Assembly (NCBI GenBank): GCA_020849625.1
Contig: JADLFV010000064.1
Span: forward strand, 27,148-91,147
Reading direction: 5' to 3'
From: Phycisphaeraceae bacterium
Lineage (GTDB): Bacteria > Planctomycetota > Phycisphaerae > Phycisphaerales > Phycisphaeraceae
DNA: 64,000 nucleotides
The notes under the pieces were generated by a model, which was not told where the DNA came from, made no database searches, and was given only the letters and a program-made list of their open reading frames with translations. The translations under genes and the position numbers were made by a program. Shown here piece by piece: positions 5,817 through 53,551 of this stretch. Each line of letters opens with the position of its first letter. The stretch's first letter is position 1.

Positions 5817-6608
5817 ATGAAGCAACGCAAGGCATTCACGTTGATAGAACTACTGGTGGTCATCTCCATCATTGCCCTGTTGATGGCCCTGTTGCTCCCG
5901 GCCCTGGTTAAAGCCCGCGAAGCAGGGCGACGCAGCGTCTGCCTGAGCAACACGCGGCAAATGATGACCGCCGCCGCTGCCTACATGGCCGATCACAAAG
6001 ACCACTTCATGTTCCAGCGAGCGCCGGACGGCGAGGTCCAGAACGCCTTGAATCCAATCAATCCCGCAGATTTTGATCCCAACTGGCTATACCTGATGAT
6101 CAGTTACTTCGGCGTGAGCGGGCCGGAGAATACCCTGGTCTGTCCCACTGTTCGCGCCATCTTTGATGCCAGCACCGATTCCCAAATTAAGGATAAAACC
6201 ACCTACGGCGCCAACGGCATGGTCACGTGGTTTGGTGGAATCGACATTCCCCAGCCCGCCAGCGTCAGCGCGTTCATGGATCAGTTTGTGTTGACTTACA
6301 GCTCCATCGTTCGTCCCTTCGCACCCGGCGGCGCAGGCGGTTACAACACCCCTCCAGGCAAATTCACCATCACCAATTCCGCGTGGGTCGGCTGGATGCG
6401 ATATAACGTAGGCACGTTAATCATTGACAGACCGCATGATGGCCGCAATCTTTCTTTCCTAGATGGCCACGCCGAGGGATTTTCCTGGAAAGACATCACC
6501 AGCCGCAAGTTCGGTTTGTTGATCGGGGGGCAGGACATCCAGGAGCCTGAAGTTCCCGGTTACAGCAACCCGGCGCGTCTCGGTCGGCCGTACTGGCTTG
6601 CGCCGTAA
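5817..6608 (+). CDS. Prepilin-type N-terminal cleavage/methylation protein (H-x-DG type)
   Basis: 263 residues from ATG 5817, chosen because GGAG (5804-5807) precedes it and the class III prepilin leader then begins at once: [20 protein letters not shown]. Cleavage would fall before the Phe of FTLIELL, followed by a hydrophobic helix. The C-terminal part has [14 protein letters not shown], a form of the H-x(n)-DG motif of the planctomycete pseudopilin-like family (DUF1559-like proteins). Such proteins are secreted or assembled by type II/IV-pilus-like machinery and are heavily amplified in planctomycetes; their individual roles are mostly unknown. It lies among PEP-CTERM and Asp-box genes and may share their regulation. 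Confidence 0.85.
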
Positions 6609-6742
6609 AGCAGACACATGCCGCAGTGGGAAAGGTGTGGGCTCGCATGCAGCGTCACGAACGTCAGCGCCTTGCGTGCCGACACGGGCAACAGTCTGGT
6701 CGACGCGGCTTGGTTGCAACAGTAATTGGAAAGACGGACACC

Positions 6743-8227
6743 ATGCTTGAGCAAATGCGCATCAGTTGGATCGTCGGTCTGATGGCTCTGGTGCTCTCCG
6801 CTTCGCCCAACATCAGCGCGCAAACGACGCTGTTCAACGGCGTGGAGGTGCCGGGGGTGGTCATCGCCCATTCGCCGGCCTCCAGCGAAAAATACATCAG
6901 TTGCCCCGCCATCGCCATCCTGCCCAATGGCGACTACGTCGCGAGCCATAACATATTCGGGCCCAATACCACCGACGTCGGCATCTACCTCACCCGCGTG
7001 TATCGCTCCACCGACAAAGGTCAGACCTGGTCGCACGCCGTGACGCTCAATCACTTGCAGGCGAACCTGTTCGTCCACAACCAGGCCCTTTACATGCTTG
7101 GCGCGCCTGGCGGCCGCAAAGAGTTGACCATCCGCAAATCCACCAACGGCGGGTTGACCTGGACCTCGCCGACCAACAGCACCAACGGCATCCTTCTCTC
7201 ATCCAGCGTCTATGGGTATCACACCTCCTCCGTGCCCATGGTGGTGCACGATGGCCGCATCTGGCGGGCTTACGAGGACAACGCCACCGGCGGGGATTGG
7301 CCCGGCCAGTTCCGCGCCGCGATGATGAGCGCCCCGATCGGCAGCGATCTGCTCAACGCCGCCAGTTGGACCCACACCAACGCCCTGGCCAGCAACCCAT
7401 CCTGGCTTCCAGGCAACGACTTCCGAGGCTGGCTGGAAAGCAATGCCGTGGTCGATCGCAACGGCCAGGTGGTGAACGTAATCCGCGTGGACGTGAGCGA
7501 GGGCAAGCCGGAGAAGGCGGCAATTATTCGATCGCCGAACCTCAACACACTCACGTTCAATCCCGGCAACGACATCATCGACATGCCCGGCGGAACCAAG
7601 AAGTTCACCATCCGCTACAGCCCCGCGGCTGACAAGTACCTCACCGTCGCCAGCATCGTCAATGAGGACAACTACGACCCAAACCGCAAACCCGAGCGCA
7701 TCCGCAACATCATGGCGTTGCTGTCCTCGGACAATCTCGAGTCGTGGACGGTGGAGCAGATCATTGTGCAGGACCTGTCCGACGTATCCAAGATCGGCTT
7801 CCAGTACATGGACTGGCAGTTCGACGGCTCGGACATTGTCATCGTCTCGCGCACCGCGTACCCCGACGGGTTGGGCGGCGCCCATAATTTCCACGACGCC
7901 AACTTCATGACTTTCCACCGTGTCAGCTACAGCTCACTGCTCACGCCCGGCGATGCGAACGCCGATGGCATGGTCACCCTGGCTGATCTGCAGATACTCG
8001 GCGACCACTGGCTGAGCGGCAGCGCCGACTGGAACCAGGCGGATTTCAACGGTGACGGGGTCGTGAACCTGGCGGACCTGCAGATTCTCGGCGATCATTG
8101 GGGCAGCGGCACGACGCTGGACATCCGCTTCGATCAGGCGCTGCAACAAAGCGGGCTGGCCGTGCCCGAGCCGGGCGCACTGTGCATGCTGGTGGCTGCC
8201 GCTTCAGGGCTGATCCTGCGACGCTAG
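6743..8227 (+). CDS. Asp-box (sialidase-like) secreted protein with dockerin repeats and PEP-CTERM, paralogue 1
   Basis: 494 residues from ATG 6743 (ATG 6755 also possible). A signal peptide (MRISWIVGLMALVLSAS) ends at ISAQ. The body is a beta-propeller-type fold with Asp boxes STDKGQTW and STNGGLTW and the YISCPAIAILPNGDYVASHN strand, as in sialidase/BNR proteins. It lacks a clean GH33 FRIP motif, so the substrate is uncertain. Two dockerin-like repeats ([20 protein letters not shown] and a second) precede AVPEPGALCMLVAAASGLIL plus RR, a PEP-CTERM signal. It is exported and cell-surface anchored. It is nearly identical over long stretches to the next gene, showing a recent tandem duplication. 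Confidence 0.8.
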   Translation: MLEQMRISWIVGLMALVLSASPNISAQTTLFNGVEVPGVVIAHSPASSEKYISCPAIAILPNGDYVASHNIFGPNTTDVGIYLTRVYRSTDKGQTWSHAVTLNHLQANLFVHNQALYMLGAPGGRKELTIRKSTNGGLTWTSPTNSTNGILLSSSVYGYHTSSVPMVVHDGRIWRAYEDNATGGDWPGQFRAAMMSAPIGSDLLNAASWTHTNALASNPSWLPGNDFRGWLESNAVVDRNGQVVNVIRVDVSEGKPEKAAIIRSPNLNTLTFNPGNDIIDMPGGTKKFTIRYSPAADKYLTVASIVNEDNYDPNRKPERIRNIMALLSSDNLESWTVEQIIVQDLSDVSKIGFQYMDWQFDGSDIVIVSRTAYPDGLGGAHNFHDANFMTFHRVSYSSLLTPGDANADGMVTLADLQILGDHWLSGSADWNQADFNGDGVVNLADLQILGDHWGSGTTLDIRFDQALQQSGLAVPEPGALCMLVAAASGLILRR

Positions 8228-47646: not shown

Positions 47647-47922
47647 ATGCACGACGACGACCTGGTCTGTCTCTGTTTTCGCGTCAGCAAGCGGAAGATC
47701 GTCAACTTCTGCCGGCGGGAGCAGCCCGCGGTGGCCAGCCGGATCAGCGAATGTCTCTCGGCCGGCACCGGTTGCCAGTGGTGCGTGCCGTATCTGAAGC
47801 GTCTGCACGAGCAGGTGCAGCAGGGCGAATCTGAGCCGGACCTGCCGGTGAATCCGCAGGAATACGCCAAACAGCGGGCCGCCTACCGCCGCAGCGGCAA
47901 GCGCCCGGCTGAGGGGGCATGA
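47647..47922 (+). CDS. (2Fe-2S)-binding BFD-domain protein
   Basis: 91 residues. The bacterioferritin-associated-ferredoxin fold is shown by four cysteines: LVCLCFRVSKRKIVNFC (C8, C10) and GTGCQWCVPYLKRLHEQV (C-x2-C). It probably holds a [2Fe-2S] cluster for electron transfer, for example to iron-storage or assimilation proteins. The tail after about residue 60 is polar. It is divergent from recR. No ferritin gene is nearby, so the partner is unknown. Confidence 0.8.
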   Translation: MHDDDLVCLCFRVSKRKIVNFCRREQPAVASRISECLSAGTGCQWCVPYLKRLHEQVQQGESEPDLPVNPQEYAKQRAAYRRSGKRPAEGA

Positions 47923-48230: not shown

Positions 48231-48503
48231 ATGGCCAAAGCACACGTCGATCCCGAACAACTGCAACGCTTCGCCCGCACCCTCACCCGCTTCAATCAGG
48301 GCCTCACCGAGATGCTCCAGGGCCTGCGGGGCCAGATGCGCCGCCTGGAAAATGACTGGCAGGATCAGGAGCAGCAGAAGTTCAGCGAGTCGTTCGAACA
48401 GATCAGCCGCAGCCTGGCCCGATTCCTGGAGCAGAGCGACGAGCACGCCCGCGTCCTGACCCGCAAGGCCCGGCACATTGAAGAGTACCTCAAGCAACGC
48501 TGA
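48231..48503 (+). CDS. WXG100-like small helical protein
   Basis: 90 residues from ATG 48231. Size and pattern fit the WXG100/ESAT-6 superfamily: two amphipathic helices (about 8-42 and 50-88) joined by a turn at LENDWQDQEQQKFSESFEQI, where W-Q-D takes the place of W-x-G. Such proteins are type VII secretion substrates or components, dimerising as four-helix bundles. No signal peptide. The FtsK-type ATPase encoded 1 kb downstream is the expected partner. The Gly of WXG is replaced by Asp, so the assignment rests on architecture plus context. Confidence 0.7.
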   Translation: MAKAHVDPEQLQRFARTLTRFNQGLTEMLQGLRGQMRRLENDWQDQEQQKFSESFEQISRSLARFLEQSDEHARVLTRKARHIEEYLKQR

Positions 48504-48513
48504 ATATGGAAAT

Positions 48514-48707
48514 GCCATTCACCGCAGAGGACACAGAGAACGCAGAGAAGCAAAGACATGAACCGCGGATGAAAGCAGATGAATATAGATCAAACAAAAC
48601 ACGGCTTCCTATCTGCGTTCATCCACGTCCCATCCGCGTGCATCAGCGTGATCTGCCTTTCTCTGCGTTCTCTGCGATCTCTGCGCTCTCTGCGGTGAAA
48701 TGTTTGT
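48514..48707. repeat. Nested inverted-repeat element inside the WXG-FtsK cluster
   Basis: The outer arms are TTCACCGCAGAGGACACAGA with GAACGCAGAGA, and TCTCTGCGTTCTCTGCGATC to GCGGTGAA. The inner arms are CGCGGATGAAAGCAGATGAA and ATCTGCGTTCATCCACGTCC to ATCCGCG. Two different unit families nest in one element. Confidence 0.65.
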
Positions 48708-48717
48708 AAGGATCGCC

Positions 48718-49329
48718 ATGCCCGGCTCAGCCAACGTTCAATCCATCGCCGAACTGCTCGAACTGCGGGCCTTTCTGCTGACCGTGGCTGACAAGATCCG
48801 CACCGGCGTTCAGTCGGCCAACTCCGAGGTCAACGCCACCGCATCCTGGATCAACCACACGCAGCCCGCATACTGGAAGTCGCAATGCGATCGCTGTCAG
48901 CGCAGTTTCCATGATGCCGCCGAAGCTCTTCGCCGAAAGAAAATGTCGCCCACGCCCACCGGCCAGCCGCCCTCGGCCCTGGTCGAGCAGAAAGCCATGC
49001 TGGCCGCCAAAGCCAAGCTCGAACATGCCCAGCAGCGGGCGGCTGTCACCAAGCAATGGAAGGCGCGCTTCGAAAAGGAAGCGTTCCTCTATCGCTGCGG
49101 CGTGCAGCCGGCCGACCGCCTGGTCGAGAGCATCATCCCCAAGGCGGCCGCGTACCTGGAGAAGCTGGTGGCCCACCTGGAAAATTACACGCACGTGTCC
49201 TTCGCCGATGCTGACGAATCGGTCGCCGATGCCGCCGCCGGGGCCGAGGCCGCGGTCACGCTGCCTCCGGGCGCCCCGCTGATCGAAGCGGACAAAGTTG
49301 ACGATGATCAACAGGAGCAGCAGCGATGA
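48718..49329 (+). CDS. Unknown helical protein in the WXG/FtsK cluster
   Basis: 203 residues from ATG 48718 (AGGA upstream). I do not recognise a family. It is almost all helix: AELLELRAFLLTVADKIRTG, a segment ASWINHTQPAYWKSQCDRCQ, then a long charged helix LAAKAKLEHAQQRAAVTKQW, and an acidic, Ala-rich C-terminus. No signal peptide or membrane segment. It overlaps the next gene by 4 nt, so it belongs to the same transcript as the FtsK ATPase. It could be a chaperone, adaptor or long substrate. Confidence 0.65.
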   Translation: MPGSANVQSIAELLELRAFLLTVADKIRTGVQSANSEVNATASWINHTQPAYWKSQCDRCQRSFHDAAEALRRKKMSPTPTGQPPSALVEQKAMLAAKAKLEHAQQRAAVTKQWKARFEKEAFLYRCGVQPADRLVESIIPKAAAYLEKLVAHLENYTHVSFADADESVADAAAGAEAAVTLPPGAPLIEADKVDDDQQEQQR

Positions 49330-49538
49330 GCGCCACGGTGGCCATGGCCCAACTCAATGACGCCCGCAAGGCGGTGCTGGCCCGCTGGCAGCACGTGTCG
49401 CATCGCTGGCGCGACCCGGCCGCCGAACACTTCCAGGAGATGATCATCGACGTCATCGACCACGATCTGCGCCAGGTGATCAGTGCCATGAACCATGCCC
49501 ACACCGTGGTGCAGAAAGCCCGACAGGAGTGTTCATGA
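49326..49538 (+). CDS. Second small WXG-like protein
   Basis: 70 residues. Two helices, with HVSHRWRDPAAEHFQEMIID in the middle; the W-R-D...F spacing resembles the W-x-G turn region and the following helix of WXG100 proteins, though it is shorter. It overlaps its neighbours by 4 nt on both sides (ATGA), so it is tightly co-translated with the ATPase. A heterodimer with the protein at 48231 is possible, but this is inference. Confidence 0.55.
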   Translation: MSATVAMAQLNDARKAVLARWQHVSHRWRDPAAEHFQEMIIDVIDHDLRQVISAMNHAHTVVQKARQECS

Positions 49539-52500
49539 ACCAGCAGGGGGCCGGCCAGCTTGTCGAGGCGGTGAGCGAGCAGCCCAGCCTGCTCCAGGTG
49601 CAGCGTCAGGCGCTTCGCCGGTTGTACGACGCCGCTCACCAGGCCGACCAGGCTGATCACACGCAGCAGACCGGCTACCGGGCCCGCAAATCATGGATCG
49701 AGCGCCGCGATCAGCGCGTGCAGGAACGAATCGCCGCCCGGGCACGGCAGTTGGCGCAGATCAACGCGGAATGCGAATCCGCGCTGGAGGCCTTCATCCA
49801 GGGCCAGCACGATCAACTACGAGCCGACGAACACGAAGCCCGCGACCTGCGCGAGCAGACCCATCGCCGCCACGAGCACGAGTTGAACCACCTGCGCCAA
49901 GACGTGGCCAACTCGCGCACCGCGGCCGTCAAGGTGCTCGAAGATCAGCAGAATCACCATGCAGCCTGGCTCAAGCGGCGGCATCAGGAAGATGACGCAT
50001 GCCATTCGCAATTGACTTTGCTGCGCCAGCAGGCGGCCGATCGCGTGCTGACCTTTCCCCGCATCATGCGCAGCAGCAGTGACAAATCGCCTGCCGAAAT
50101 CACCATTGAAACGCCCGATGAGGAGCAGGCCTCCAAGGTTCAGATCGACCGCTTCATGGAGCAATCCGTCCTCGCGGTGCGTCGCTTGCACGAGTTGACG
50201 CTGCCGCACGCTTTCTTCGGCGTCGAGCCTTATCTGTGGTCGGTGCTGGTGCTGTTCGCCGGGGCCGGCAGCGGTTACGCCGCGATGAAAATCTGGCCGG
50301 CGTGGAAGGTTTCGACTGGTATGGCCGTGCTCAGCGGCATGGCGGCGGCCCTGGGCCTGATCCTGCTGACCGGGCTGACGCTCTTCCAACTGGCCCGGCG
50401 GCGGGTGCGCGTTTACAGCGCCCGGGCTGAGGCCGCCTTCAGCGCCCTGGACCGCGCCATCGAGCACGACCGTCAGCTCGCCCGCAGTCTGCACGATGAA
50501 CAAGTCGCCGCCGCCCAACAGACCTGCGATGAGAAAACCCGCAAGATCGATGAGAGCTATGCCGCGCGCCACAAAAAAATCGAACGCAAGGGCAAAGACG
50601 CCGTGGTCAAACTCGAGCAGGTGATCAAGGAGCAACGCCAGACCCGCGCCGCCGCCCAGGTCAAAGAGCTGGCCGCCTTCAAGCGCGACTCGGAGCAGCG
50701 CCGCAAAAGATTGGCCGATTGCCTGGCCCTTCGCCGCGAAGTCGCCCAGCGCCGCACCGGGCGCGACATGGGCCGGCTGGAGACGATGTTCCACAACGCC
50801 CAGAGCGCCTTGCTCGATGGCTGGACCGCCGGCCGCGACCAGGTGCTGGCCGAATTGGAGCCGTCGCAACAACTGGACGCCGCACACAATCAACCGTGGA
50901 GCGATCCGGCCTGGCCCGACTGGACGCCCTCACCGAAGCCCGCCGCCGCGGCGCGTTTCGGTCAACTGGCGATTGCCTCTGACTGTCTGCTCGATCCCCA
51001 GCAACGCGGCGGGCAATTCGACCTGGGTTGGCCGCCGCATTACGCCATTCCCGCCATCCTGGCCGGGCCCGGTGAGCGCAGCCTGCTGATCCAGACCGAT
51101 CCGCTCGGCCGCGAGCCTGCTCTCGATGCCGTGCGCTCCGCCATGATGCGCCTGCTCACCACCTTGCCGCCGGGACAGGTCAAGTTCACACTCATCGATC
51201 CGGTGGGCCTCGGCCAGACTTTCGCCGGGTTCATGCACCTGGCGGACTACGATGAATCGCTGGTCAACACCCGTATCTGGAGCGAGCCGGCCCAGATCGA
51301 GCAGCGCCTGGCCGACCTGACCGATCACCTCAGTTACGTCATTCAGAAACACCTGCGCAATCGCTTCGAGCACATCGACGCCTACAACCTCCAGGCCGGC
51401 GAACTGGCTGAGCCTTACCATTTCGTGGTGGTGGCGGATTATCCACAAGGCCTGACGCCGACCGCCATCGCCCGCTTGAACTCGATCGCTGCCAGCGGCC
51501 CGCGCTGCGGGGTGTACGTGCTGGCCGTGCAGGATGTGCGGCAGCGGCTGCCTTCGGATGCCGAGAGCGACCTGGCTGCCCGTTGCACGACGATTCAACA
51601 GGTGCAGCAACAGAATGGCGACGCTCCGCCGCGCTACGTCTGGCGCGATGAGGTGTTCTCGCGTTTTGCGTTAACCCTGGACAAGCCGCCCAGTGACGAG
51701 TTGATGCGCGAACTGATCGACCGCGTCGGCCGCCAGGCGGTGTCCGCATCGCGCGTGCAGTTGCCGTTCGCCACCATCGCGCCGTCGGCTGACAAGCTGT
51801 GGTTCAAGTCCAGCAGCCACGATCTGTCGGTGCCCATCGGCAAGGCCGGCGCCACGCGCCTCCAGCCGATGACCTTCGGCGTCGGCGTCGCTCAGCACGC
51901 TCTGATTGCCGGCAAAACCGGCTCAGGTAAATCCTCGCTCCTGCACGCCCTGGTGACCAACCTCGCTCTCTGGTACAGCCCCGATGAACTGGAGCTTTAC
52001 CTGGTCGATTTCAAGCGCGGCGTCGAGTTCAAACCCTACGTCACCCATCGCATTCCCCATCTGCGGGCCGTGGCCATCGAGTCCGACCGCGCCTTCGGCT
52101 TGTCCATTCTCAAAAAGCTTGATGCCCAGATGGACGAGCGCGGCGAAAAATTCCGCAAGACCGGCGTGCATGACATCGCCTCGTATCGCGCCGCCAGGCC
52201 TGATGATCGCATGCCGCGCACGCTGCTGATCGTTGACGAGTTCCAGGAGCTTTTCGCAGCCGACGATCAGATCGCGCTGACTGCCGCGACGTTGCTCGAT
52301 CGACTGGTGCGCCAGGGCCGCGCCTTCGGCATGCACGCCATCATGGGCACGCAATCACTCAGCGGTGCGGCGGGACTGGCACTGGGCACCGCCAGCCAGA
52401 TGGCCGTGCGCGTCGCATTGATGTGCGGCGAGGCGGACTCGCAACTGATTCTGGGCGAAGACAACACCGCCGCCCGCCTGCTCAGCCGCCCCGGCGAAGC

Positions 52501-53551
52501 GATCTACAACGAGCAGGGCGGAGCCGCCACGGCCAACATTTTCTTTCAGGTCGCCTGGTTGCCCGGTGAATTGCACAAGCAGCAGCTCGACCGCGTGGCC
52601 CAGCATCACGAATCGCGCGGCGGCAGGGCGGTGCAGTGCGCGGTGTTTGAAGGCTCGCTCCCGGCCGACATCTCCGCCAACATCCCGCTGGCCGCGGCCC
52701 TGACCCATCCCGCCGCGGCGGATGATCATGAACCGGCCAGGGCTTATCTCGGTGAGCCGATCGCCATCGAACCACCGGCCGCGTTCGAGTTGCCCCGCAT
52801 CAGTGGCGCTAACGGCCTGATCATCGGGCCCCGCGCTGAATCCGCACTGGCCATCACCTTCAGCGGCGTGTTGAGCCTGGCCGCCCAGTTGCCGCCGGAC
52901 CGCGCCCGCTTTGTCATCATCAACGGCTCACCCGAGCCGGAGCACGCCCGCCAGTTCGAGCATTGGCCGCAACTGATGCCCAACCGCTGCGACCTGGTCG
53001 CCTGGCGTCAGATCAGCTCCGCCATCGCCGAACTGCACGAGTTGATGCAACAGCGCACGCAGGACAGCGCCAGCTATCCGCAGCCGTCGGTGTTCCTGAT
53101 CGTGTTCGCCCTGCATCGCCTGCGCGATCTGCGCAAACGCGAGGAGGAAATCTCCTTCAACTTCGACGCCGACAAAGACTCTTCGCTTCCTGGGGCGGGG
53201 GCGGTGGTTCCGGGGGCGGACAAGATGTTCGTCGAACTGCTGCACGACGGACCGGCCGTGGGCATCCACACCATCGCATGGTGCGATCGCGCCGCCGCCC
53301 TGGATCAGATGTTCGACCGCCGTGATCTGCGGGCCTTCGACCAGCGCGTGCTCTTCCAGATGAGCGCCACCGACTCCGCCACCCTGATCGACTCAGCCGA
53401 CGCCAATCAGCTTGGCCCCTTCCGCGCCCTGCTCTACCGTGAAGACCGCGGCACCCAGCGCATCATCCGCCCCTACGGCCCCCCGGAAGCGGCCTGGCTG
53501 GAGCGGTTCGCCCAGACACTGCGAAATCGCTCGCAAACAGCGGGCGGTTAA
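49535..53551 (+). CDS. FtsK/SpoIIIE-type ATPase, EccC/EssC-like
   Basis: 1338 residues from ATG 49535 (AGGAG 5 nt upstream; GTG 49529 is less likely). Layout: a long coiled coil (about 20-190); two membrane helices near 230-290 (SVLVLFAGAGSGYAAMKIW and MAAALGLILLTGLTLFQLA); a second coiled coil (300-440); then three ATPase-like modules. Module 1 (about 490-680) lacks a P-loop (LAGPGERSLLIQTDPLGREP). Module 2 has Walker A AGKTGSGKSS (792-801, K799) and Walker B TLLIVDEFQELF (D901, E902). Module 3 (about 1085-1320) has a degenerate loop (LIIGPRAESALAITF). Three tandem modules and an N-terminal membrane anchor recall type VII secretion EccC/EssC, not chromosome-pumping FtsK, since no gamma DNA-reading domain is seen. 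Confidence 0.85.
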   Translation: MNQQGAGQLVEAVSEQPSLLQVQRQALRRLYDAAHQADQADHTQQTGYRARKSWIERRDQRVQERIAARARQLAQINAECESALEAFIQGQHDQLRADEHEARDLREQTHRRHEHELNHLRQDVANSRTAAVKVLEDQQNHHAAWLKRRHQEDDACHSQLTLLRQQAADRVLTFPRIMRSSSDKSPAEITIETPDEEQASKVQIDRFMEQSVLAVRRLHELTLPHAFFGVEPYLWSVLVLFAGAGSGYAAMKIWPAWKVSTGMAVLSGMAAALGLILLTGLTLFQLARRRVRVYSARAEAAFSALDRAIEHDRQLARSLHDEQVAAAQQTCDEKTRKIDESYAARHKKIERKGKDAVVKLEQVIKEQRQTRAAAQVKELAAFKRDSEQRRKRLADCLALRREVAQRRTGRDMGRLETMFHNAQSALLDGWTAGRDQVLAELEPSQQLDAAHNQPWSDPAWPDWTPSPKPAAAARFGQLAIASDCLLDPQQRGGQFDLGWPPHYAIPAILAGPGERSLLIQTDPLGREPALDAVRSAMMRLLTTLPPGQVKFTLIDPVGLGQTFAGFMHLADYDESLVNTRIWSEPAQIEQRLADLTDHLSYVIQKHLRNRFEHIDAYNLQAGELAEPYHFVVVADYPQGLTPTAIARLNSIAASGPRCGVYVLAVQDVRQRLPSDAESDLAARCTTIQQVQQQNGDAPPRYVWRDEVFSRFALTLDKPPSDELMRELIDRVGRQAVSASRVQLPFATIAPSADKLWFKSSSHDLSVPIGKAGATRLQPMTFGVGVAQHALIAGKTGSGKSSLLHALVTNLALWYSPDELELYLVDFKRGVEFKPYVTHRIPHLRAVAIESDRAFGLSILKKLDAQMDERGEKFRKTGVHDIASYRAARPDDRMPRTLLIVDEFQELFAADDQIALTAATLLDRLVRQGRAFGMHAIMGTQSLSGAAGLALGTASQMAVRVALMCGEADSQLILGEDNTAARLLSRPGEAIYNEQGGAATANIFFQVAWLPGELHKQQLDRVAQHHESRGGRAVQCAVFEGSLPADISANIPLAAALTHPAAADDHEPARAYLGEPIAIEPPAAFELPRISGANGLIIGPRAESALAITFSGVLSLAAQLPPDRARFVIINGSPEPEHARQFEHWPQLMPNRCDLVAWRQISSAIAELHELMQQRTQDSASYPQPSVFLIVFALHRLRDLRKREEEISFNFDADKDSSLPGAGAVVPGADKMFVELLHDGPAVGIHTIAWCDRAAALDQMFDRRDLRAFDQRVLFQMSATDSATLIDSADANQLGPFRALLYREDRGTQRIIRPYGPPEAAWLERFAQTLRNRSQTAGG

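What the first reader, a model, noticed from the sequence alone, without database searches (positions are those of the whole stretch)
48231..53551. Minimal type VII secretion-like locus: WXG-like proteins plus a three-module FtsK ATPase with one live P-loop
A 90-residue WXG100-like protein, an unknown 203-residue helical protein, a 70-residue W-x-D protein and a 1338-residue membrane-anchored FtsK/SpoIIIE ATPase lie in order, the last three with 4-nt overlaps. The ATPase has three tandem modules as in EccC/EssC, but only the middle one keeps Walker A (K799) and Walker B (D901, E902), and two long coiled coils surround its membrane helices. None of the usual T7SS partners (EccB, EccD, EccE, mycosin, EssA, EssB, EsaA) is seen nearby. 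In actinobacterial EccC the first module is the one tied to regulation, so a live middle module with dead flanks would be a different working plan. This may be an undescribed planctomycete branch of type VII secretion.
Basis: partly seen in the sequence, partly recalled or inferred. Interest (0 to 1): 0.78.

Follow-up and report, generated by a model that had tools for sequence, protein, structure and literature searches.

The report
Membrane-anchored WXG pump in planctomycetes
A share of planctomycete bacteria carries a set of four genes, for three small helical proteins and one three-part ATPase, that likely forms a stripped-down protein export machine akin to type VII secretion; similar sets were already described in other bacteria, but here the ATPase is predicted to sit in the membrane and no recognised toxin gene lies with it.

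Summary
The genes W (WXG100, 90 aa), H (203 aa), S (70 aa) and A (ATPase, 1338 aa) are real, in order, the last three with ATGA overlaps. A has three FtsK/EccC-type modules and exactly one P-loop, in the middle one, in 110 of 110 aligned sequences. W, H and S precede A in 50 of 59 relatives with enough upstream sequence. A and W co-occur in 71 of 151 genomes of the order (1 A-only, 2 W-only) and 53 of 294 of the phylum (1 A-only), in some cases megabases apart. S is a short WXG100-like hairpin; H is predicted as a long helical hairpin. The pattern is not undescribed: WXG genes with a three-module ATPase live only in the middle were noted for planctomycetes in 2012 and with CoCoNuTs in 2024, and a minimal WXG/FtsK set in Helicobacter in 2016. 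New here: the constant partners H and S, genomes where the four genes are dispersed yet kept, and a predicted pair of membrane helices absent from the plasmid relatives. Best reading: a toxin-free T7SS-like exporter (likely, untested). Whether the live module corresponds to EccC D1 or D2 stays unresolved: sequence and structure disagree.

The parts
48231..48503 (+). W: 90-aa WXG100 protein (turn motif W43-Q-D, not WxG); invariant Y86 near the C-terminus
   Evidence: Pfam WXG100 E 6.9e-13; PDB best Helicobacter HP0062 (family profile 1.6e-12); 53-row alignment
48718..49329 (+). H: 203-aa protein, predicted long helical hairpin (helices 8-76 and 88-175) with an acidic, low-confidence tail
   Evidence: no family over cut-off; 58-row alignment; AlphaFold2 pLDDT 88.2; no clear PDB fold match, best E 1.6e-2
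49326..49538 (+). S: 70-aa short WXG100-like hairpin, W28-x-D30
   Evidence: W and D identical in 61 of 61; profile match to W E 5.3e-5, probability 67; 10 of 61 members, not the window's own, match Pfam WXG100 at E <= 0.1, best 9.2e-4
49535..53551 (+). A: 1338-aa FtsK/EccC-type ATPase
   Evidence: PF01580 E 1.6e-39; NCBIfam EccCa E 3.2e-35, below the equivalog cut-off; PDB best EccC 4nh0
50210..50377 (+). two predicted membrane helices of A (about residues 226-281)
   Evidence: hydropathy
51047..51679 (+). module 1 of A (about residues 505-715), no P-loop
   Evidence: no significant profile match to any EccC/EssC domain
51767..52579 (+). module 2 of A (about residues 745-1015), live; Walker A 51911-51934, Walker B 52223-52240
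52718..53509 (+). module 3 of A (residues 1062-1325), no P-loop

Best explanation
These four genes, which co-occur across planctomycete genomes even in some where they lie far apart, likely encode a membrane-anchored, type VII secretion-like export machine. Inferred mechanism: A would form a ring in the inner membrane, held by its predicted helix pair. W (a WXG100 hairpin, likely a dimer as reported for HP0062) and S (a short WXG-like hairpin) would bind the long helical hairpin of H. The live middle module would hydrolyse ATP, while the two modules without a P-loop would act as docking and gating surfaces. The W-H-S complex, or H with its variable C-terminus, would be the cargo, moved into the periplasm. 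Shown: the genes, their conservation and co-occurrence, the single P-loop, and the kinship of A and W with plasmid cassettes that also hold small genes and a coiled-coil protein, in one of them ending in a nuclease. Predicted: membrane helices and folds. Inferred: complex formation, ring, export, domestication from a mobile cassette. Untested: any transport at all.
For: W is WXG100. S is WXG100-like. A's live module by profile: EccC/EssC D1 212 > D2 162 > FtsK 152 > D3 70; module 3 matches EccC/EssC D1-D2 but not FtsK (T7SS profiles of four sequences with domain bounds set by me). Foldseek's best match for A is the three-module EccC (E 3.5e-31; FtsK 9.6e-12). W, H and S lie upstream of A, in that order and on the same strand, in 50 of 59 loci with room; any other ORF family recurs in at most 10 of 110 loci (flanks of 0-8 kb, so a lower bound). 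Co-occurrence of A with W: 71 both, 1 A-only, 2 W-only, 77 neither of 151; 53 both, 1 A-only of 294. H and S found in 25 of 25 genomes that I chose among those with A and W, H once in each, including genomes where the genes are dispersed. Predicted helix pair in 94 of 104 and in none of six plasmid or contig relatives ahead of the modules, bar one segment inside a TerD domain.
Confidence: 0.5

Rival explanations
1. An intracellular stress or defence machine: the ATPase ring and WXG hairpins act on H inside the cell (holding, remodelling or activating it), with no export; the membrane helices only anchor it.
For: Plasmid relatives of A lack the membrane pair; the Caballeronia relative sits beside vWA, CARF, phosphatase and kinase genes; the Rhodococcus AH-ZY2 relative carries an N-terminal TerD domain, E 4.4e-19; R. 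pseudokoreensis has Hsp70, TPR and GrpE genes beside it; the eLife 2024 paper describes such cassettes in Type III-A CoCoNuT operons (passages); no export motif; a Ser/Thr-kinase-like ORF (by eye) occurs near 9 of 110 planctomycete-type loci.
Against: The planctomycete A has a predicted helix pair in 94 of 104; no family other than W, H and S recurs in more than 10 of 110 loci.
Confidence: 0.3
2. A toxin delivery system whose toxin and immunity genes lie elsewhere or have been lost; H is the delivery half of a polymorphic toxin.
For: Helicobacter plasmid: a coiled-coil protein in the H place ends in a nuclease (PF14414 E 1.1e-11) and is followed by a SUKH protein; H of several planctomycetes ends in an Imm33-like domain.
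Against: Exactly one H per genome in 25 of 25 and no LXG domain in this genome: no toxin repertoire seen; the usual H end is a short acidic tail (median 44 residues, 18% D/E, 78 tails). The Helicobacter nuclease protein itself did not match the H profile at E < 0.05.
Confidence: 0.13
3. A DNA pump of the FtsK/HerA kind with helical accessory proteins.
Against: FtsK forms its own clade, 100/99, without this family; profiles favour EccC/EssC for modules 2 and 3; Foldseek ranks EccC and EssC first; WXG100 partners are not part of FtsK systems (recalled).
Confidence: 0.07

Closest known systems
Solo WXG plus three-module YueA-like ATPase, 'mobile versions of T7SS' (Zhang et al. 2012, PMC3482391, table footnote; passage seen)
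   Same: WXG gene, ATPase with three HerA/FtsK modules of which only the middle is active; planctomycetes are named
   Different: The passage gives no partners (H, S) and no membrane helices, and calls the systems mobile; here four co-inherited genes, H once per genome in 25 of 25 checked
[quoted passage not shown] passages seen)
   Same: Three ATPase modules with the middle one live, N-terminal coiled coil (not tested by predictor here), two WXG100-type proteins, one helical or coiled-coil partner
   Different: There the ATPase lacks membrane helices, the coiled-coil partner carries a restriction-type nuclease, and TerY-P and CoCoNuT genes adjoin; here a predicted helix pair, no nuclease found, and no such gene set among the recurrent neighbours (a kinase-like ORF near 9 of 110 loci)
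Helicobacter HP0062/HP0066 (PMC3397514 and PMC4978471; passages seen)
   Same: HP0062 is the closest solved structure to W, with WRD in the turn, clustered with an FtsK/SpoIIIE protein; WxG and FtsK are called a minimal T7SS set
   Different: Helicobacter clusters carry an HNH-type nuclease; a related plasmid ATPase is 823 aa without a membrane pair
EccC/EssC of type VII secretion
   Same: Tandem FtsK-type modules, membrane anchor ahead of them, WXG100 partner
   Different: Scores far below the equivalog cut-offs, one P-loop, no EssB or YukD in the genome, no WxG and no YxxxD/E

Membership tests
Type VII secretion system (T7SSa/b) | WXG100-family protein | tested here: met
   Pfam WXG100 E 6.9e-13, over cut-off
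Type VII secretion system (T7SSa/b) | W-x-G turn motif | tested here: not met
   WxD in 53 of 53 W and 61 of 61 S rows, WxG in none
Type VII secretion system (T7SSa/b) | YxxxD/E export signal (recalled) | tested here: not met
   0 of 53 W, 0 of 61 S, 3 of 58 H within the last 25 residues of the aligned rows; H and S rows were trimmed
Type VII secretion system (T7SSa/b) | EccC or EssC as judged by curated cut-offs | tested here: not met
   EccCa 122 of 509 bits, EccCb 85.5 of 346.6, EssC 72.9 of 778.4
Type VII secretion system (T7SSa/b) | membrane partner EssB/YukC, and YukD | tested here: not met
   absent from the genome (96% complete), Bacillus subtilis control rings
Type VII secretion system (T7SSa/b) | EccB | tested here: inconclusive
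   no match but no control rang either
Type VII secretion system (T7SSa/b) | EccD, EccE, mycosin, EssA, EsaA | not tested
   no genome-wide search made
Type VII secretion system (T7SSa/b) | ATP-driven export of WXG100 proteins | not testable with these tools
   needs experiment
Solo-WXG/three-module-ATPase minimal systems (2012 footnote; CoCoNuT extension) | three modules, only the middle one with a P-loop | tested here: met
   110 of 110 sequences have exactly one GxxxxGK[ST]; three modules in the model
Solo-WXG/three-module-ATPase minimal systems (2012 footnote; CoCoNuT extension) | two small WXG100-type proteins | tested here: met
   W clear, S by weak but consistent profile matches
Solo-WXG/three-module-ATPase minimal systems (2012 footnote; CoCoNuT extension) | coiled-coil partner fused to a nuclease (CoCoNuT form) | tested here: not met
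   the window's H, whole, has no Pfam family over cut-off; of the longer H ends of relatives, four plus the ORF in L026 were scanned and gave Imm33-like or nothing
Solo-WXG/three-module-ATPase minimal systems (2012 footnote; CoCoNuT extension) | ATPase without membrane helices (CoCoNuT form) | tested here: not met
   two hydrophobic segments in 94 of 104 sequences
Solo-WXG/three-module-ATPase minimal systems (2012 footnote; CoCoNuT extension) | mobile element | tested here: inconclusive
   neighbours differ even from same-family relatives; no direct search for mobility genes
FtsK/HerA DNA translocases | live module groups with FtsK | tested here: inconclusive
   outside the FtsK clade (100/99), but the order of FtsK, T7SS D1 and this family is unresolved

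The most novel reading that the evidence does not exclude
A mobile WXG/FtsK toxin cassette was domesticated in planctomycetes: it lost its toxin and immunity genes, its ATPase gained a membrane helix pair, and it became a cellular export machine of a diderm phylum, kept as a four-gene set even after the genes scattered over the chromosome. That would be a type VII-like exporter built without the known type VII membrane partners.
Probability: 0.3. Interest if true: 0.72.

Novelty: new variant of a known kind. Interest (0 to 1): 0.5.

Why it matters
T7SS is studied as a system of Gram-positive bacteria and mycobacteria; whether the WXG/ATPase sets of diderms export anything is open. This set occurs in a phylum with cultured members, has no recognised toxin to confuse the readout, and defines four parts, so deleting one gene and asking whether W, H and S still leave the cytoplasm would settle it. 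The dispersed genomes, which break the operon yet keep all parts, are strong comparative evidence that the four proteins work together.

Tried and rejected
(1) My first idea, that module 1 is the degenerate DUF/D0 of EccC, module 2 is D1, module 3 is D2 and D3 is missing, is only half supported. Profiles put module 2 nearest D1, but module 1 matches no EccC/EssC domain significantly (D0 15.6, best D2 27.7), module 3 does not choose between D1 and D2, the whole model aligns with D1-D2-D3 (713 residues, rmsd 13.5), and modules 2-3 align with EssC and EccC D2-D3 (479 and 495 residues). Left open. VIA rows barely cover module 1, so its fold was not searched by itself. (2) H as a known fold: 759 Foldseek matches, none at E <= 0.001, the listed ones generic long helices. 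(3) H as a WXG100: profile match weak (probability 23). (4) Extra effectors or further partners: none recurrent beyond 10 of 110 loci. 19 of 21 proteins show the Imm33-like ending, but that search was led by an Imm33-bearing first row, so the share says nothing about the whole family. (5) Loci with room but without the full trio: L038, L045, L046, L062, L066, L067, L075 lack all three, L104 lacks W, L093 has W only; their genomes were not searched. In G079 and G077, whose ATPase loci also lack the trio over 14 kb, W, H and S lie elsewhere. (6) Profiles for W and S were iterated together and picked each other up; genes were assigned by the better score, and the genome counts use the separate alignments A1, A2, A3. 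(7) Relatives that fit less well: the Deinococcus plasmid ATPase shows no GxxxxGK[ST]; R. pseudokoreensis has no convincing W, H or S (best W 6.4 bits); in Caballeronia and Helicobacter the 76- and 77-aa genes in the S place did not match the S profile at E < 0.05, nor did the Helicobacter nuclease protein match H, so their reading as S and H is by place and size. E-values are for sets of 8 and 27 proteins, without the bias filter, so coiled-coil matches may be inflated. The sixth plasmid hit (Nonomuraea) has no annotation and was not analysed.
Full report
What is there. The window holds four same-strand genes: W 48231-48503, H 48718-49329, S 49326-49538 and A 49535-53551. H/S and S/A share ATGA. 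W is a true WXG100 protein (Pfam E 6.9e-13) and the only Pfam WXG100 match at E <= 0.001 of the 4.82 Mb genome. Its best solved relative is Helicobacter pylori HP0062 (phmmer 3.2e-6; family profile 1.6e-12), then EsxB and EsxA types. H and S match no curated family over a cut-off.

Which module is live, in EccC terms. Profile-profile scores of the live module are D1 212, D2 162, FtsK 152, D3 70; module 3 scores D1 62.8, D2 60.1, D3 41.8, FtsK 21; module 1 scores at most 27.7 (the T7SS profiles come from three EccC and one EssC sequence, with domain bounds set by me). A tree of 41 live-type modules puts this family and its plasmid relatives together (96/93), FtsK apart (100/99) and T7SS D1 apart (95/86), with three T7SS D2 rows across a 98/93 branch; the order of the first three is open, and the tool flags several long branches. 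By sequence the live module therefore looks like D1. By structure modules 1-3 lie on D1-D3 and modules 2-3 on D2-D3 of EssC and EccC (479 and 495 residues), so it stands at D2. PMC9436818 (passages) describes EssC as DUF plus D1-D3 and suggests a four-domain D0-D1-D2-D3 series.

S and H. W28 and D30 of S are identical in 61 of 61 rows. The W and S profiles match over the turn (E 5.3e-5, probability 67), and 10 of 61 S members, not the window's own, match Pfam WXG100 at E <= 0.1. S is best read as a short WXG100-like hairpin. Both W and S have WxD, never WxG (53 of 53; 61 of 61), and no YxxxD/E in the aligned rows; WRD in HP0062 is noted in PMC3397514 (passage). H is predicted as two helices of 69 and 88 residues (pLDDT 88.2) with no clear PDB match. 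H tails have a median of 44 residues with on average 18% D/E (78 tails). In some relatives the tail is an Imm33-like domain: L009 4.8e-8, L014 1.2e-7, the ORF upstream in L026 3.1e-8, and L033 below cut-off.

Conservation. Of 110 loci with an ATPase relative, 59 had at least 2 kb upstream; 50 of these 59 have W, H and S there, all 50 in the order W-H-S-A on one strand; 7 have none, L104 has H and S, L093 has W. Other ORF families recur in at most 10 of 110 loci (an oxidoreductase-like family, 10; a Ser/Thr-kinase-like family, 9; both by eye), with flanks of 0-8 kb. Three same-family relatives share no neighbour outside the set with the window (L123, L124, L125). In 151 genomes of the order 72 have A (long match), 73 have W, 71 both (table and Fisher p 1.3e-39, which does not correct for kinship). 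G138, the A-only case, has A at a contig edge. In 294 genomes of the phylum (overlapping the first set) 54 have A, 53 W, 53 both; G352 is A-only. I then chose 25 genomes that have both: H and S were found in 25 of 25, H once in each. A few genomes show a second W-type match (3 of 73) or a second full-length A (G204). Linkage is broken in several: in G224 A, W, S and H lie at about 0.23, 0.71, 1.94 and 2.66 Mb of one contig; in G167 W, H-S and A are at 2.5, 4.3 and 5.9 Mb; in G079, G310 and G253 the trio W-H-S sits apart from A; in G276 W-H sit apart and S is beside A. Four genes that keep company genome by genome without an operon most likely work together.

Relatives outside planctomycetes. 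Plasmid scans found six records with a relative of modules 1-3 at E <= 1e-20. Rhodococcus sp. AH-ZY2: ATPase (1322 aa, one P-loop, N-terminal TerD domain), a 314-aa protein whose front matches H (23.0 bits), a 73-aa gene matching S weakly (10.1 bits) and an 87-aa gene matching W (43.1 bits). Helicobacter sp.: W-type 89 aa (52.8 bits), a 340-aa protein ending in a WHH/colicin-type nuclease (1.1e-11, 9.8e-9), a SUKH protein, a 77-aa protein and the ATPase; neither the 340-aa nor the 77-aa protein matched H or S. Caballeronia: WXG100 (81.7 bits), a 436-aa protein with a weak H match (15.1 bits), two small genes, the ATPase, then CARF, vWA, phosphatase and kinase genes. Deinococcus: ATPase without a recognisable P-loop, W-type (38.5), S-type (23.4) and H-type (20.6) genes. 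R. pseudokoreensis: ATPase with one P-loop beside Hsp70, TPR and GrpE genes, no convincing W, H or S. Nonomuraea was not analysed. Ahead of the modules none of the five plasmid ATPases nor the faecal-contig one has a hydrophobic segment of 1.5 or more, except Rhodococcus AH-ZY2 at residue 17, inside TerD. In these forms the H place is held by coiled-coil proteins with extra C-terminal parts, in one case a nuclease followed by an immunity-type protein.

What was already in print. Zhang et al. 2012 (PMC3482391, table footnote; [quoted passage not shown] PMC4978471 (passages): WxG and FtsK as a minimal type VII set in Helicobacter pylori, with HP0062 and HP0066. PMC11090510 (passages): in Type III-A CoCoNuT operons an EssC-like ATPase with only the central domain active, N-terminal coiled coil, no membrane helices, two WXG100 proteins and a coiled-coil nuclease. 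Anantharaman et al. 2012 is cited there but not held. Searches for a dedicated planctomycete account found none: WXG100+Planctomycetes+FtsK 0 papers; type VII secretion+Planctomycetes 6, of which only PMC3482391 was opened; WXG100+planctomycet 3 (listing only). Most subscription papers are not held.

Mechanism. Shown: the parts, their conservation and co-inheritance, one P-loop, and kinship of A and W with plasmid cassettes. Predicted: folds and membrane helices. Inferred: A forms a membrane ring; W and S cap or carry the long H hairpin; ATP hydrolysis in the middle module drives the complex, or H alone, across the inner membrane; the other modules dock and gate. I put 0.5 on export, 0.3 on an intracellular role, 0.13 on hidden toxin delivery and 0.07 on DNA movement. 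As a family claim it should be filed as T7SS-like, not as T7SS: several defining features were tested and not met.

Value. The core pattern is known, so this is a variant, not a new kind. What is worth a specialist's time is the membrane-anchored planctomycete form without a recognised toxin, the identification of S and H as constant partners, and the dispersed genomes.

Noticed in passing
window 48504-48717: The W-H gap is filled by a 214-nt element whose ends are inverted repeats (40 nt, 85%) built of TCTGCG-type units; 5 matches to TCTGCGTTCTCTGCG (up to 2 mismatches) in the window against 0.25 expected, all inside this element. It looks like a dispersed repeat; copies elsewhere in the genome were not searched.
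   Followed up: partly
L095:3509-7595: In an Anaerolineae relative two ORFs lie between S and the ATPase, each with a charged helical front and one hydrophobic segment, followed by what looks by eye like TPR and WD40 repeats; the ATPase itself has only about 160 residues ahead of module 1. The anchor may be a separable module.
   Followed up: partly
L143:6727-11854: The Rhodococcus plasmid ATPase has a TerD domain at its N-terminus (E 4.4e-19), TerD genes downstream, and its H-type protein shares by eye a ParB-like C-terminal end with H of L095 (no Pfam match).
   Followed up: partly
L144:1-10411: A faecal contig labelled Bacteriophage sp. carries a related ATPase (E 4.5e-138) beside a ThiF-like ORF (by eye), a WND hairpin (weak W and S matches) fused to some 270 further residues (6316-7368), and a serine-recombinase-like ORF (by eye); it looks more like an integrative element than a phage.
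   Followed up: partly
L009, L014, L026, L033: An Imm33-like domain (an immunity-type family) is fused to the C-terminus of H or of the ORF in its place (L033 below cut-off); no toxin gene was looked for around these loci.
   Followed up: partly
L045, L067, L100: Three contigs labelled Candidatus Kuenenia stuttgartiensis carry the ATPase; L045 pairs with Planctomicrobium L062 at 99/97 in the tree, so the bin names may be wrong.
   Followed up: no
window 47647-47922: A small BFD-like ferredoxin gene (Pfam E 1.1e-7) lies just upstream; ordinary.
   Followed up: no
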